From Lachnospiraceae bacterium AB2028 (GTDB lineage Bacteria; Bacillota; Clostridia; Lachnospirales; Lachnospiraceae): 64,000 nucleotides of DNA. Made by a program: the position numbers and the translations under genes. Each line of letters begins with the position of its first letter. Within the stretch, counting starts at the first letter, position 1. A model generated the notes under the pieces. That model saw nothing but the letters and a program-made list of their open reading frames with translations. It had not been told where the DNA came from and ran no database searches. Where the stretch lies: positions 1-64,000 of the forward strand of contig JHYJ01000008.1 of assembly GCA_000621425.1 (NCBI GenBank), given 5' to 3'. This document shows, piece by piece, positions 1 through 39,442 of the stretch.

Positions 1-71
1 TTCCGGCCTTCGGCATCAAGAATACAGCAGTCATGCTTGTCCTTGGCAATATCGATACCAACATAGATCAT
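1..71 (-). CDS. IS110-family transposase, N-terminal fragment (cut by window edge)
   Basis: Twenty-three codons are visible, starting at 71 with MIYVGIDIAKDKHD and followed by CCILDAEG. This is the first strand of the RuvC-like DEDD domain of IS110 transposases: the D in GIDIAK is the first catalytic acidic residue of the family. A strong ribosome binding site (AAGGAGGA, around 82-89) precedes the ATG. IS110 enzymes are RNA-guided recombinases that move the element as a circular intermediate. The remainder of the gene is outside the window, so intactness cannot be judged. Confidence 0.85.
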   Translation of the reverse strand, partial: MIYVGIDIAKDKHDCCILDAEGR

Positions 72-120
72 AAATGTGATCCTCCTTAAAAAGTATTTGA
101 TGCTGCTGCTATAAAGATCC

Positions 121-262
121 ACAGGGCTCTTTGCATGCTGTAACCTCGTTCTACATAAACCGTCATGCGGTATCTAACTGATTAACAATTAAACAAAGAG
201 ACTGTGGTTGGAGCCTTTCAACAACCGTCTGTGCGGTAGGAGGCTAAAACCAATCCACAGCA
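121..262 (-). ncRNA. Putative IS110 bridge RNA in the transposase leader
   Basis: Read on the minus strand, the leader forms two successive stem-loops. In the first, CTGTGG-A-TTGG (260-250) pairs with CCAACCACAG (211-202), continued by AGCC/GGCT (245-242 with 215-212), enclosing an open internal loop and an apical ACCG/CGGT hairpin (237-234 with 227-224). In the second, CTCTTTG (200-194) pairs with CAAAGAG (133-127), enclosing large unpaired loops and another apical ACCG/CGGT hairpin (171-168 with 162-159). Two consecutive hairpins with internal loops upstream of the transposase is the architecture described for IS110 bridge RNAs, where the loops pair with target and donor DNA. The pairing is seen directly; the function is inferred. 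The exact ends are not known. Confidence 0.6.
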
Positions 263-265
263 TCT

Positions 266-541
266 TCAACAGCATACCCTATACCTATAGAAAAGGTAAA
301 GAATGGGTATGACTATATAATACGAGGATGCTATGCCGGTGTACATAAGGCACCTAATAACTAACTTTTCCCGGGTAAGCCGAAGTGAAATAAGAAATAC
401 AAGAAGCACGGGCACAAGACCCAATGCCACATAAAATGCTTTCTCAGGTCCCATATTTGAGTACACATAAAAAGCATGCAGAAGCACCGCACAAAGAAAC
501 TCTACTATGAATATTGTGACATTCGTCCTAAAAGGAAGCAT
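266..541 (-). CDS. Small hypothetical membrane protein, possibly truncated by IS110
   Basis: The 91-residue protein has three predicted membrane segments (about residues 9-28, 36-52 and 65-86) and a short basic loop between the second and third. I do not recognise the family. It starts 4 bp after the cysteine desulfurase stop codon, with a weak AAGG site inside that gene, so it is probably the last gene of that operon. Its stop codon lies within a few bases of the IS110 leader, and the final residues RYRVCC may not be native: the insertion could have clipped a longer protein. No function can be assigned. Confidence 0.5.
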   Translation of the reverse strand: MLPFRTNVTIFIVEFLCAVLLHAFYVYSNMGPEKAFYVALGLVPVLLVFLISLRLTREKLVIRCLMYTGIASSYYIVIPILYLFYRYRVCC

Positions 542-3505: not shown

Positions 3506-5722
3506 TTATCTTTTGATTGCCTCAAAAATTATTACACTACGTTCCATAATACGGTACTCATCAGAATGCCGCTCGCCGGTTTCCATTTCCGCCATCTCGT
3601 CATCCATCCATCCGGCCATAGGATCGCGTTCATATGTATCCACTACCCGCCTCCAGCTGTAACCTGATTCTGCAGGTAATGCCGGAAGTCTTACAGTAAG
3701 CGGTTCCCAGTAAGAATTTATCGCAAGATATACCGCCTGATCCACCTGCGTCTTTTCATTTTCTCCGGCAAACATAACGCCTATATAATGTGAATCAGCC
3801 GCATACTTCCCATCCCAGGGCTTTGTCCCATGATTGGACATCTCAGGATATCCGAAAGCACCGTTCCTACACTTCTTTCTTATGCAGTCATGATCTTTAC
3901 GGAACCTTATCATGTATTTGAAGAAATCAAACAGCTCACCGTTCCTGCTTAAGTCTTCCCAGTTAAGCCAGGAAATAAAATTATCCTGACAGTATGCATT
4001 GTTATTGCCGCCCTGGGAATTACCAAATTCATCTCCCATGTAGAACATAGGCGTTCCCCGGCTGCACAAAAGCACTGCTGCAGCATTCATCACCATTCTC
4101 TTACGTAACTTGTTTATCTCCGGATCCGAAGTTTCTCCCTCTACACCGCAGTTCCAGCTCCGATTATCATCCGCTCCGTCCGTATTGTCCCAGTTGTTTT
4201 CCTCGTTATGTTTTCTGTCATAAGTATACAGATCATGAAGAGTGAAACCGTCATGGCAGGTCAGGAAATTAACCGATGCAGCAGCCCCCCTGTTTTCAGG
4301 AAGGTACATATCCGGCGAACCCATTATCCTGCATGCAGCCGCAGCAGCAAATCCATTATCACCTTTCAAGAATGACCTCAGGTCATCGCGGTATCTTCCG
4401 TTCCATTCTGCCCATCTGTTCCATGAAGGGAAAGATCCCACCTGATAGAGACCGCCTGCATCCCAGGCTTCGGCTATAAGCTTTACGCCGCCAAGTATTG
4501 GATCAAAAGCCAGTCCCTGCAGCAAAGGCGGTTTGCTCATGGGAGAACCGTCCTCGTTTCGTCCCAGTATTGTAGCAAGATCGAACCTGAAACCGTCCAC
4601 ATGGTAAACAGTCACCCAGTACCTTAAGCAGTCCATGATAAGACGCTGCACGATAGGATGATTACAGTTAAGGGTATTTCCGCAGCCGCTGAAATTATAA
4701 TACTTTCCATCCGGAGTAAGCATGTAATAAATATTATTGTCTATGCCCTTAAAGCTGAAGGACGGGCCTCTCTCGTCCCCCTCTGCCGTGTGGTTGAATA
4801 CAACATCTAACAGTACATCTATCCCATGCTCATGGCATACTTTGACAAGTTTCTTAAGCTCTGTTCCTTCCCTGTTATATTCAGTGTCTGCCGCATAACT
4901 GGTATTAGGGGCAAAGAAACATACCGTATTATATCCCCAGTAATCTATAAGCTCCCTGCCGTAAAAATCCCTGTGGGGAAGGGTCTCATCAAACTCAAAT
5001 ACAGGCATCAGCTCTATTGCCGTAACGCCTAAGCGCTCAAGGTACGGGAGCTTTTCCATTATGCCTTCAAATGTTCCGTGATGTTCAACACCTGATGATC
5101 CGGCCTGGGTAAAGCCCCTTACATGCATTTCATAGATTATAAGGTCTTCCATCTGGTTGGCAGAGTTGCCCTGCACGCCCCAGTCAAAATCATTTCTGAC
5201 AACGCGGCCCTTATATAAACCCACATTGTGGGATCCCCACTTGCTCTGGCCAGTCACGGCCCTGGCATAAGGATCCAGCACCACATTGTTCTTATCAAAC
5301 AGCAGTCCTTTTTTCGGATCATAAGGTCCGTCAAAACGGTATGCGTATTCAAACTCTTCAATATCAAGGTCAAAAACTATCATCGACCAGACATTACCGA
5401 TACGGTATTTCTCCGGAAACGGAAGGACAGCATAAGGTTCATCTGCTTCCCGCTTGTACAAAAGCAGTTCACAGTATGTTGCCTGATTTGAAAAAATAGT
5501 GAAATTAACGCCGCTGGGAATAGCGGTTGCCCCGTTTATCTCGTAAAAACCGGGCCTTACATCAAAGCCCGAAATTTTATCATAGGGCCTCATATGCACA
5601 TGCCCGTATATAGACGCAGATGCAGGCACTGATATCATGCTTTTTGCCGTATCAAGTATTGCAGCGGCACTTTTGTCCCTGTCTGAAACCTTTTTTTCGG
5701 CTTTACTTTTTTTCTGTGCCAT
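3506..5722 (-). CDS. glgX: Glycogen debranching enzyme / isoamylase, GH13 (GlgX-like)
   Basis: This GH13 enzyme hydrolyses alpha-1,6 branches of glycogen or starch-like glucans. An N-terminal CBM48-type domain (to about residue 180) precedes a (beta/alpha)8 barrel. Catalytic motifs are visible: DVVFNHT near 306, the nucleophile in GFRFDLATI near 380, the acid/base glutamate in IAEAWD near 417, and the transition-state aspartate in TCHDG near 489. At 738 residues it is close to GlgX and isoamylase. The start overlaps the end of pseF by 20 nt, with a GGTGGGGG stretch as possible ribosome binding site. GlgX and bacterial isoamylase cannot be separated by inspection. A branching enzyme gene lies 6.6 kb away in the same orientation, but no glgA, glgC or glgP is in the window. 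Confidence 0.88.
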   Translation of the reverse strand: MAQKKSKAEKKVSDRDKSAAAILDTAKSMISVPASASIYGHVHMRPYDKISGFDVRPGFYEINGATAIPSGVNFTIFSNQATYCELLLYKREADEPYAVLPFPEKYRIGNVWSMIVFDLDIEEFEYAYRFDGPYDPKKGLLFDKNNVVLDPYARAVTGQSKWGSHNVGLYKGRVVRNDFDWGVQGNSANQMEDLIIYEMHVRGFTQAGSSGVEHHGTFEGIMEKLPYLERLGVTAIELMPVFEFDETLPHRDFYGRELIDYWGYNTVCFFAPNTSYAADTEYNREGTELKKLVKVCHEHGIDVLLDVVFNHTAEGDERGPSFSFKGIDNNIYYMLTPDGKYYNFSGCGNTLNCNHPIVQRLIMDCLRYWVTVYHVDGFRFDLATILGRNEDGSPMSKPPLLQGLAFDPILGGVKLIAEAWDAGGLYQVGSFPSWNRWAEWNGRYRDDLRSFLKGDNGFAAAAACRIMGSPDMYLPENRGAAASVNFLTCHDGFTLHDLYTYDRKHNEENNWDNTDGADDNRSWNCGVEGETSDPEINKLRKRMVMNAAAVLLCSRGTPMFYMGDEFGNSQGGNNNAYCQDNFISWLNWEDLSRNGELFDFFKYMIRFRKDHDCIRKKCRNGAFGYPEMSNHGTKPWDGKYAADSHYIGVMFAGENEKTQVDQAVYLAINSYWEPLTVRLPALPAESGYSWRRVVDTYERDPMAGWMDDEMAEMETGERHSDEYRIMERSVIIFEAIKR

Positions 5723-19206: not shown

Positions 19207-19249
19207 ATGCTGCTCCTTTCGTAGAAAAAAAATTCTTTTTACATTTTAT

Positions 19250-19382
19250 ACGAATTACTTCGCAATTCGTCCCTGCATTCGCAATCCGTGGGGTTCCCCC
19301 ACTACTTGCTCATGCAGGGGTGCGCCCAAAGTAATTTGCGCCATTGCAAACAAGTTTGCATGGCGCCATTCACTTTTGGCGC
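19250..19382. repeat. Cluster of three inverted repeats between dapL and the DJ-1 gene
   Basis: Three palindromes lie end to end. The first is ACGAATT with AATTCGT (19250-19256, 19264-19270). The second is CCCTGCAT with ATGCAGGG (19271-19278, 19312-19319) enclosing GTGGGG/CCCCAC (19288-19293, 19297-19302). The third is a ~30-bp imperfect arm on each side of an AA loop (19322-19351, 19354-19382). The third stem follows the dapL stop codon by 6 bp and could end or stabilise that transcript, though there is no clear U-run. The overall design resembles a miniature repeat element or a folded RNA. No copy is seen elsewhere in the window. Confidence 0.7.
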
Positions 19383-19388
19383 TTAAAA

Positions 19389-20603
19389 TTACATCTTTTT
19401 AATCCTGTCAATAGCCTCTACTGTATTCTCGTAGCTGCCGAATGCAGTCAGGCGGAAATAGTGCTCACCGCTGGGACCGAAACCGGATCCGGGTGTACCT
19501 ACTACATTGGCTTCCGCAAGAAGCTTGTCGAAGAACTCCCAACTAGTCATATTGTCAGGTGTCCTGAGCCAGATGTAAGGTGCATTCACGCCGCCATATA
19601 CTTCATAGCCTGCTTCCTTAAGGCCGTTAGAAATGTAAGCGGCATTTCTCATATAGTAAGCTACCTGTTCTGCAAGCTGTTTCTTTCCTTCTGCGGAATA
19701 AACAGCCTCGCCTGCTTTCTGGATGATGTAAGGCGCACCGTTATACTTTGTACCATGGCGTCTTGCCCAGAGTGAATGGAGCTGAACATCACCGCACTTA
19801 AGATCCTTAGGTATTACGGTATAGCCGAGACGGACACCTGTGAAGCCTGCATTCTTTGAGAATGAATGAATCTCAATTGCACAGGTTCTTGCGCCTTCAC
19901 ACTCATATATGCTGTGAGGAATATTATCTTCGCTGATGTATGCTTCATAAGCAGCATCATAAATGATAACTGCCCCAACTTTATTTGCGTAATCAACCCA
20001 CTCCTGAAGGGCAGATTTTGTTATTACTCCGCCGGTAGGATTGTTAGGGAAGCAGAGATAGATAATGTCAGGTGTCTCTGCGGGAATCTCAGGCATGAAG
20101 TTGTTCTCTGCCGTGCAGGGCATATAGATCACATCAGACCATGTCTCGCTTGCCTCATCAAATACTCCGGTCCTGCCTGCCATAACATTGGTATCAACAT
20201 ACACAGGATAAACAGGATCGCAGACTGCAACCTTGCATTCCTTTGCAAATATCTCCTGGATATTTCCGCAGTCTCCCTTAGCTCCGTCAGAGATAAATAT
20301 CTCATCGTCTGCTATATCGCAGCCCCTTGCCCTATAATCATTCTCCGCTGCAGCTTTTCTTAAGAATTCATATCCAAGGTCCGGTGCATAGCCATGGAAA
20401 GTCTCTGCATCAGCCATTTCATCAACAGCCTTGTGAAGGGCATCTATAAGAACCGGTGCCAGGGGCTGCGTAACATCACCTATGGACAGTCTTATTATCT
20501 TCTTGTCAGGATTTGCAGCCTGAAATGCCTTTTGCTTGTTTGCTACTGTTGAAAACAGGTAGCTTCCGCGCAGTTTTAAGTAGTCTGAATTAGCCTTGAA
20601 CAT
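19389..20603 (-). CDS. dapL: LL-diaminopimelate aminotransferase DapL
   Basis: DapL turns tetrahydrodipicolinate directly into LL-diaminopimelate with glutamate as donor, bypassing the acylated pathway. The 404-residue protein starts with the DapL-type segment LKLRGSYLF, has GDVTQPLAP near 43-51, YAPDLGYEFLR near 72, FPNNPTGG near 185, and the PLP lysine in SFSKNAGFTGVRLG near 246. It is a class I/II PLP aminotransferase of standard DapL length. AAAGGAGAG precedes the ATG. The epimerase dapF lies upstream, giving the last two steps to meso-diaminopimelate together. Confidence 0.95.
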   Translation of the reverse strand: MFKANSDYLKLRGSYLFSTVANKQKAFQAANPDKKIIRLSIGDVTQPLAPVLIDALHKAVDEMADAETFHGYAPDLGYEFLRKAAAENDYRARGCDIADDEIFISDGAKGDCGNIQEIFAKECKVAVCDPVYPVYVDTNVMAGRTGVFDEASETWSDVIYMPCTAENNFMPEIPAETPDIIYLCFPNNPTGGVITKSALQEWVDYANKVGAVIIYDAAYEAYISEDNIPHSIYECEGARTCAIEIHSFSKNAGFTGVRLGYTVIPKDLKCGDVQLHSLWARRHGTKYNGAPYIIQKAGEAVYSAEGKKQLAEQVAYYMRNAAYISNGLKEAGYEVYGGVNAPYIWLRTPDNMTSWEFFDKLLAEANVVGTPGSGFGPSGEHYFRLTAFGSYENTVEAIDRIKKM

Positions 20604-39072: not shown

Positions 39073-39080
39073 CCTAAATC

Positions 39081-39432
39081 GAGCGGAGCAGATGATCGCA
39101 TGCGAAAGCATGAGGAAAGTCCGGGCTTCACAGGGCAGGATGCCGGATAACGTCCGGCGGAGGCGACTCCCGGGAAAGTGCAACAGAAAACAAACAGCCG
39201 GATAGCGCAAGCTTTCCGGTAAAGGTGAAAAGGCAGTGTAAGAGACTACCGGTCGTGTGGTAACACAGGACGCATTGTAAACCCCATCCGAAGCAAGACC
39301 AAACAGGGGACCATGGGTTGGCCCGATCCGTCTCCAGGTAGGTCGCTTGAGCTGTATGGCAACATGCAGTCGAGATAGATGATCATCCCGGCACTTATGT
39401 GCTATGACAGAACCCGGCTTACAGCTCCACTC
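39081..39432 (+). ncRNA. rnpB: RNase P RNA (class A)
   Basis: Ribozyme that matures tRNA 5' ends. P1 is formed by GAGCGGAGC (39081-39089) and GCTCCACTC (39424-39432). The conserved core is visible: GAGGAAAGTCCGGGCTTCAC in the first third, AACAGAAA in the middle, GGTAAAGGTGAAAAGG, the CATTGTAAACCCCATCC block, and the final AGATAGATGATCATCCC and ACAGAACCCGGCTTACAG. At 352 nt it is of normal class A size. A U-rich run follows directly. Confidence 0.96.
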
Positions 39433-39442
39433 TTTTTTTATT
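39433..39442 (+). terminator. T-rich end of rnpB
   Basis: A run of seven T residues starts directly after the P1 strand, so P1 itself may act as the terminator stem. Confidence 0.55.

What the first reader, a model, noticed from the sequence alone, without database searches (positions are those of the whole stretch)
121..262. Candidate bridge RNA for an IS110 element
The transposase leader folds into two stem-loops, each with a closing stem, open internal loops and an identical apical ACCG/CGGT hairpin. This matches the two-loop design described for IS110 bridge RNAs, and the repeated apical motif suggests a shared recognition feature. The loops should pair with target and donor DNA, so the guide sequences could be read from the full element.
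Basis: partly seen in the sequence, partly recalled or inferred. Interest (0 to 1): 0.72.

Follow-up and report, generated by a model that had tools for sequence, protein, structure and literature searches.

The report
Bridge RNA of an IS110 element
The flagged stretch encodes what looks like a genuine guide RNA that steers a bacterial jumping gene to its landing site, and in many related copies the guide resembles the ribosome's own docking sequence and the element sits at the ribosome-binding site of a gene.

Summary
Across 42 aligned copies, 98.9% of base-pair cells are kept and 10 of 32 pairs change on both sides. Target guides match their own flanks better than permuted flanks (0 of 20000). 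The right donor guide covaries with the left end. Right plus left end forms a -35/17/-10 motif in 51 of 52 elements. The window copy interrupts a sensor histidine kinase gene. So: a new member of a known kind. Less expected: the guides centre on CCTCCTTTCT, the anti-Shine-Dalgarno tail of 16S rRNA, and 30 of 51 distinct left flanks sit at the ribosome-binding position of an open frame (right-flank control 3 of 52); a second set gave 14 of 18. In this genome only 3 of 8 copies do, and not the window copy. IS900 is a partial precedent. Expression and activity are untested.

The parts
1..71 (-). first 23 codons of the IS110 transposase (MIYVGIDIAKDKHDCCILDAEGR), cut by the contig start
   Evidence: family from full-length copies in the same genome, Pfam DEDD_Tnp_IS110 + Transposase_20
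81..87 (-). AAGGAGG, probable ribosome-binding site of the transposase
   Evidence: sequence
127..200 (-). donor-binding loop: closing stem 194-200 with 127-133
   Evidence: not in the lone fold of longer RNAs
174..179 (-). left donor guide AGTTAG, equal to AGTTAG of the element's right end
159..171 (-). apical hairpin of donor loop, ACCG (168-171) / CGGT (159-162)
145..149 (-). right donor guide ACGAG, complementary to the left end CTCGT; covaries with it in relatives
202..260 (-). target-binding loop: closing stem 255-260 with 202-207
240..248 (-). left target guide TTTAGCCTC, followed by core CT at 238-239
224..237 (-). apical hairpin of target loop, ACCG (234-237) / CGGT (224-227)
215..223 (-). 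right target guide TGTTGAAAG, complementary to CTTTCAACA; the three right flanks of this subfamily begin CTTTCAACA (C2), CTTTCAATT (C13), CTTTTATTA (C4)
273..311 (-). 5' stem-loop of the bridge RNA (CATACCC 305-311 with GGGTATG 273-279)
   Evidence: relatives show a second stem type by eye
317..322 (-). -10-like TATTAT in the left end; with TTGACT of the right end, 17 nt apart, in the joined ends
325..326 (-). CT core / left boundary of the element; copies diverge two bases beyond it
327..541 (-). 5' part of the interrupted host gene (sensor histidine kinase); its continuation is at the start of contig C4

Best explanation
Window 1-326 is the left part of an IS110-group insertion sequence whose left end encodes a bridge RNA. 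After excision to a circle, the joined right and left ends form a promoter that transcribes the RNA; the transposase binds it; the donor loop pairs with the element's own right end/CT/left end junction, the target loop pairs with a chromosomal site around a CT, and the enzyme recombines the two. Shown by sequence here: the element ends, the conserved fold, guide-to-flank and guide-to-end complementarity with covariation, the promoter motif across the joined ends, conserved catalytic residues. Inferred from IS621: circle formation, transcription, binding, strand exchange. In this family the target guides centre on the anti-Shine-Dalgarno sequence, and in both sets examined a majority of insertions fall in the ribosome-binding site of a gene read away from the left end; because the core CT is retained, the AGGAG survives next to the start codon. 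The window copy itself landed inside a kinase gene at an imperfect match.
For: Copies in the same genome give the boundaries. Left guide 4.51 of 6 own matches versus 3.12 permuted (n=49 distinct guide pairs), right guide 3.37 of 4 versus 1.74 (n=41), 0 of 20000 permutations each; second set 4.94 versus 3.52 (n=16) and 3.41 versus 2.32 (n=17), 0 of 20000 each. Left end and right donor guide agree in 58 of 58, left ends being CTCG in 53, CTTG in 3, CTAC in 1, CTAG in 1; two letters were free in both patterns. Structure. Junction motif 51 of 52. D6, E59, D102, D105, S311, G312 invariant in 24 of 24 transposases, in the order of IS621 D11, E60, D102, D105, S241, G242 (passages of PMC11208158; no alignment to IS621 was made). 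Ribosome-binding-site position: 30 of 51 distinct flanks, ATG starts peaking 9-15 nt after the core; right-flank control 3 of 52; AGGAG elsewhere 48 of 186; arbitrary positions 3540 of 35562; second set 14 of 18. 23 of 27 scanned downstream frames have a Pfam match.
Against: No expression or activity data. The lone fold of the longer RNA loses the donor loop. The left donor guide hardly varies: it covaries in one locus (L084), and L048 has AGCTAG against a right end AGTTAG. Right-guide letters 6 and 7 match no better than permuted (12 against 10.5, 16 against 16.0 of 41). The window copy's site fits only in part: 6 of 9 letters on the left (CATAGCATC for TTTAGCCTC), 4 of 7 on the right (TTTATTA for TTCAACA, two of the three mismatches being possible G-T wobbles), and it is not a ribosome-binding site. 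In this genome 3 of 8 left ends (C9, C10, C13) meet the start-codon test, 5 (C5a, C5b, C6, C11, C16) do not. 21 of 51 flanks fail it. Some right flanks, such as L047 and L051, fit their guide poorly. Relatives share ancestry, so counts over copies are not counts of independent events.
Confidence: 0.96

Rival explanations
1. The stem-loops are a transposase-leader regulatory structure (attenuator or RBS-sequestering hairpin), not a guide.
For: The structure sits just upstream of the transposase start.
Against: It would not explain why target-loop letters match the flanks of each separate insertion or why the donor guide covaries with the left end.
Confidence: 0.02
2. It is a bridge RNA, but the ribosome-binding-site preference reflects survival only: insertions there keep the gene, others are lost.
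For: The core restores the AG of AGGAG, so such insertions may be mild; 21 of 51 sites are elsewhere, and guides may follow the sites that survive.
Against: The guides themselves resemble the anti-Shine-Dalgarno letters (mean 5.36 of 8 over 36 distinct programmed targets, against 2.26 for 8043 CT sites of the window; all 8 column majorities agree).
Confidence: 0.2
3. Chance folding of an A+T-rich leader.
For: Single-sequence z-scores of only -1.9 to -2.9.
Against: Covariation and slid controls.
Confidence: 0.01

Closest known systems
IS621 bridge RNA (IS110 group; Durrant 2024 PMC11208160, Hiraizumi 2024 PMC11208158; passages seen)
   Same: RNA in the left end; 5' stem-loop plus target and donor loops with split guides; CT core; promoter at the right-left end junction; DEDD plus serine recombinase; first loop variable, second conserved (here 0.66 and 0.80 bits for target guides, 1.94 and 1.66 for donor guides)
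   Different: IS110 elements are described there as going to sites such as REP elements; this family programs an anti-Shine-Dalgarno-like target. Both loops here carry an ACCG/CGGT-type apical hairpin; I did not compare that with IS621 base by base.
seekRNA of ISEc21 and IS1111 elements (Siddiquee 2024 PMC11187229; passages seen)
   Same: Non-coding-region RNA that sets the target; upstream location as in the IS110 type
   Different: The described ISEc21 RNA is 74 nt, 58 nt sufficing; here the two paired loops alone span about 135 nt.
IS900 of Mycobacterium avium subsp. paratuberculosis (IS110 family)
   Same: The title of Doran 1997, seen only in the reference list of PMC8141618, says it targets translation initiation signals
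   Different: Recalled, not read: insertion between ribosome-binding site and start codon, separating them. Here the AGGAG stays with the gene. No RNA guide for it came up in what I saw; not searched for specifically.

Membership tests
IS110 group of the IS110 family | DEDD (RuvC-like) plus Transposase_20 domains | tested here: met
   Pfam on the full-length copies C5a and C5b, 2 of 2. The window holds only 23 codons.
IS110 group of the IS110 family | catalytic D, E, D, D and serine-glycine | tested here: met
   invariant D6, E59, D102, D105, S311, G312 in 24 of 24 aligned transposases, matched to IS621 by order only; the window copy shows only the first D
IS110 group of the IS110 family | non-coding RNA upstream of the gene, left end longer than right end | tested here: met
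   left end 255 nt from core to start codon; right end about 165 nt in C5a
IS110 group of the IS110 family | circular intermediate | not testable with these tools
   needs reads or PCR
[quoted passage not shown]
   two main stem-loops with covariation; 5' stem-loop in the lone fold and by eye in the alignment, its covariation not counted; the lone fold does not show the donor loop
IS110 bridge RNA | target loop complementary to both sides of the insertion site around the core | tested here: met
IS110 bridge RNA | donor loop complementary to the element's own ends | tested here: met
   right guide 58 of 58; left guide 53 of 54, but the pattern that found the right end fixed AGTTA, so only the last letter was free
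IS110 bridge RNA | sigma-70-type promoter rebuilt at the right-left end junction | tested here: met
   TTGAC-17-TAT.AT in 51 of 52 joined ends; the pattern that found the left end already fixed part of the -10 box, not the -35 box or the spacing to it; the 52nd (L066) has TTGACT-17-TACTAT by eye
IS110 bridge RNA | RNA expressed and bound by the recombinase | not testable with these tools
   needs RNA-seq and a binding assay
Rfam-described RNA family | match above gathering score | tested here: not met
   no match in 1-420; at E<=10 two matches far below their gathering scores

The most novel reading that the evidence does not exclude
A lineage of IS110 elements in Lachnospiraceae, Faecalibacterium and other Clostridia carries bridge RNAs whose target guides mimic the 16S rRNA anti-Shine-Dalgarno tail, giving a target present before many genes of any host that uses Shine-Dalgarno sequences; insertion keeps the Shine-Dalgarno sequence of the gene while cutting it off from its promoter. 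Some members (for example the Mogibacterium copies L068-L071) have guides that have moved away from it.
Probability: 0.75. Interest if true: 0.6.

Novelty: new member of a known kind. Interest (0 to 1): 0.5.

Why it matters
It is a natural data set for bridge RNA targeting: closely related recombinases with many different guides and known insertion sites. If the anti-Shine-Dalgarno reading holds, it shows how an RNA-guided element can aim at a host-independent, genome-wide motif, and suggests an explanation for why an IS110 relative such as IS900 was reported to seek translation start signals.

Tried and rejected
Single-sequence folding as proof was rejected: z of -1.88, -2.21 and -2.85, the plus strand folds almost as well (-37.3 against -41.1), and the longer RNAs lose the donor loop. 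Rfam gave nothing useful. The 16S tail could not be read in the window's own genome: no match to the shorter pattern, and no 16S hit in it or in 8 same-genus genomes (that search also missed 5 of its 14 control genomes). It was read in 3 of 30 relatives, all at order level; in G036:C26 it begins at the last base of the 16S match. I considered that the left end gives the downstream gene a promoter (TATAAT on the other strand), but it lies too close to the Shine-Dalgarno sequence; dropped, untested. A covariance model was not built. Right-flank assignment of the other copies stayed open: C11 or C16 with C4 also gave open frames of 310 and 306 codons, but with only 10 and 6 codons on the left side, against 88 and 300 for C6 with C4.

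Rows dropped: one search kept one locus per distinct guide pair and needed both guides and a full flank (49 and 41); one search left out 7 loci with short flanks; one search dropped 4 near-duplicate flanks (55 to 51); one search kept 42 of 61 copies; searches scanned 27 of 30 frames (C9, C10, C13 not scanned); of 39 loci 28 parsed, then 7 duplicates of the first set and 3 short flanks went, leaving 18. The 11 not parsed: L172, L173 partial matches; L170, L171 at 55% and 52% identity; L159, L181 near a contig end; L179 parses only with a looser pattern; L153, L163, L168, L169 show no such left end and are unexplained. The start-codon window (6-16 nt, frame of at least 60 codons) was chosen after reading the first set; one search used it unchanged. 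A shift of 5 nt still gives 24 of 51, as the windows overlap.

Literature: searched the held open-access library. I judged by the listings (20 of 29 papers listed, 15 of 184) and opened passages of six papers (PMC11208160, PMC11208158, PMC11187229, PMC8141618, PMC7823733, PMC3196728; the last two held nothing on targeting in the passages shown). None of what I saw reports an IS110 bridge RNA aimed at the Shine-Dalgarno sequence. Subscription papers, preprints and supplements were not searched.

Full report
What is there. The window is the first 64 kb of contig C6 of a 3.48 Mb draft genome. By record titles the named relatives of its element are mainly Butyrivibrio and other Lachnospiraceae (74 loci). 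The contig starts inside an IS110 transposase on the minus strand: ATG at 71, MIYVGIDIAKDKHDCC. The same genome holds eight left ends: C6 and C11 (identical), C16 (identical over the 94 nt it holds), two complete elements on C5 at 88% and 86%, and three at 79% (C9, C10, C13). C6 and C11 are identical for 328 nt and then diverge; with the other copies this puts the boundary at the CT core, 325-326. Right ends reading TAATAGTTAGT then CT were found on C5 (two), C2, C4 and C13 and at the starts of C2 and C8. Complete copies are 1585 bp counting one core. Full-length transposases carry DEDD_Tnp_IS110 and Transposase_20.

The RNA. Minus strand 262->121 folds into two stem-loops, with a 5' stem-loop just upstream (273-311). 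Folded alone, the longer RNA keeps the target loop but not the donor loop. Forty-two non-redundant copies, 4 of them from this genome, were aligned (42 kept of 61). RNAalifold returned both loops. For the structure written by hand, 98.9% of cells pair, 10 of 32 pairs have changes on both sides (shuffle mean 3.2, 0 of 500 reaching 10), further pair types were reached by 11 of 500 shuffles, and slid controls pair in 28-45%. The fourth pair of the target-loop hairpin is G-C in 25, A-U in 16 and G-U in 1 of 42.

The guides. Reading each loop outward from the apical hairpin gives left and right guides. For 49 distinct guide pairs the six left letters match the locus's own left flank at 4.51 on average against 3.12 when flanks are permuted; for 41 the first four right letters match at 3.37 against 1.74; none of 20000 permutations reached either value. 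Right letters 6 and 7 match no better than permuted. A second set, from a search of 393 genomes of the order, gave 4.94 against 3.52 and 3.41 against 2.32. Clear single cases are C9 (GAATGTCTC in guide and flank, 9 of 9) and L059 (right flank and guide both ACTCGA); L047 and L051 fit poorly on the right. Donor side: left end and right donor guide agree in 58 of 58 loci, including three CTTG, one CTAC and one CTAG left ends; the patterns left two letters free in both. The C9 family, not parsed by the pattern, reads CTACT in the left end and AGTAG in the guide by eye. Target-guide columns carry 0.66 and 0.80 bits, donor guides 1.94 and 1.66; a variable first loop and a conserved second one is what PMC11208160 reports (passages).

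Promoter. Right end, CT and left end together give TTGAC(T/A), 17 nt, TAT(N)AT in 51 of 52 elements. The exception L066, and by eye the C9 family, has TTGACT, 17 nt, TACTAT.

Target of the window copy. Of the three right flanks of this subfamily only that on C4 continues the frame read from 541 to 327: 88 codons on the left and 300 on the right within the 900 nt looked at on each side. The C4 part is HisKA plus HATPase_c. The window copy therefore splits a sensor histidine kinase gene. Its site is GCATAGCATC-CT-TTTATTATA against guide letters TTTAGCCTC-CT-TTCAACA: 6 of 9 and 4 of 7.

Ribosome-binding sites. Many left flanks, read away from the element, begin GAG followed by a start codon. Of 51 distinct left flanks, 30 have a start 6-16 nt after the core opening a frame of at least 60 codons, with ATG starts peaking at 9-15 nt; moving the origin by 10-120 nt leaves 2-9 of 51; AGGAG elsewhere in the flanks scores 48 of 186, arbitrary positions 3540 of 35562, right flanks 3 of 52. 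A second set, criterion unchanged, gave 14 of 18, and 0-3 of 18 after shifts of 10-100 nt. In this genome 3 of 8 left ends pass (C9, C10, C13). Of the 30 frames, 27 were scanned and 23 had a Pfam match, among them lactate dehydrogenase, acetate kinase, methionine sulfoxide reductase, AddB and ParB. The guides agree: 36 distinct programmed targets match CCTC-(CT)-TTCT at 5.36 of 8 letters, against 2.26 for 8043 CT sites of the window, and all eight column majorities are these letters. The 16S tail GGATCACCTCCTTTCT, which contains CCTCCTTTCT, was read in 3 order-level relatives, not in this genome. Loci whose left guide ends CTC sit at such a site in 23 of 33 cases, others in 7 of 17.

Mechanism. 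Architecture, split guides, CT core, junction motif and active-site residues match what is reported for IS621 (passages), so the same route is inferred: circle, transcription, loading, target and donor pairing, strand exchange. None of these steps was observed here. Because the core keeps the AG of AGGAG, the gene keeps its Shine-Dalgarno sequence but loses its connection to the upstream promoter; this consequence is inference.

Known or new. As an object it is a bridge RNA of an IS110-group element, described in 2024. Targeting of translation start signals has a precedent in IS900, known to me here only by the title of Doran 1997 in a reference list and by recall. The link between guide and anti-Shine-Dalgarno sequence did not appear in what I saw of the searches listed under Tried and rejected.

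Noticed in passing
L073 and L075, upstream of the target loop: Two different 5' stem-loop types stand in tandem, each found alone in other relatives; looks like a recombinant or duplicated 5' module.
   Followed up: no
window 19242-19390 (-): Clostridiales-1 RNA (Rfam RF01699, 103 bits).
   Followed up: no
window 39080-39437 (+): RNase P RNA, class A (RF00010).
   Followed up: no
G000:C1:216242-217408 (L022): A distant IS110-like transposase (29% identity) in the same genome, a separate lineage.
   Followed up: no
L066 and C9/C10/C13 left ends: Left end CTAC instead of CTCG with a matching guide change, and a 3-nt shift of the -35 box that keeps the 17-nt spacer (by eye).
   Followed up: partly
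L089: Target loop present but no donor loop parsed and no left end found; possibly a decayed element.
   Followed up: no
L153, L163, L168, L169: Relatives of the transposase at 68-77% identity without this type of left end; their ends were not worked out.
   Followed up: no
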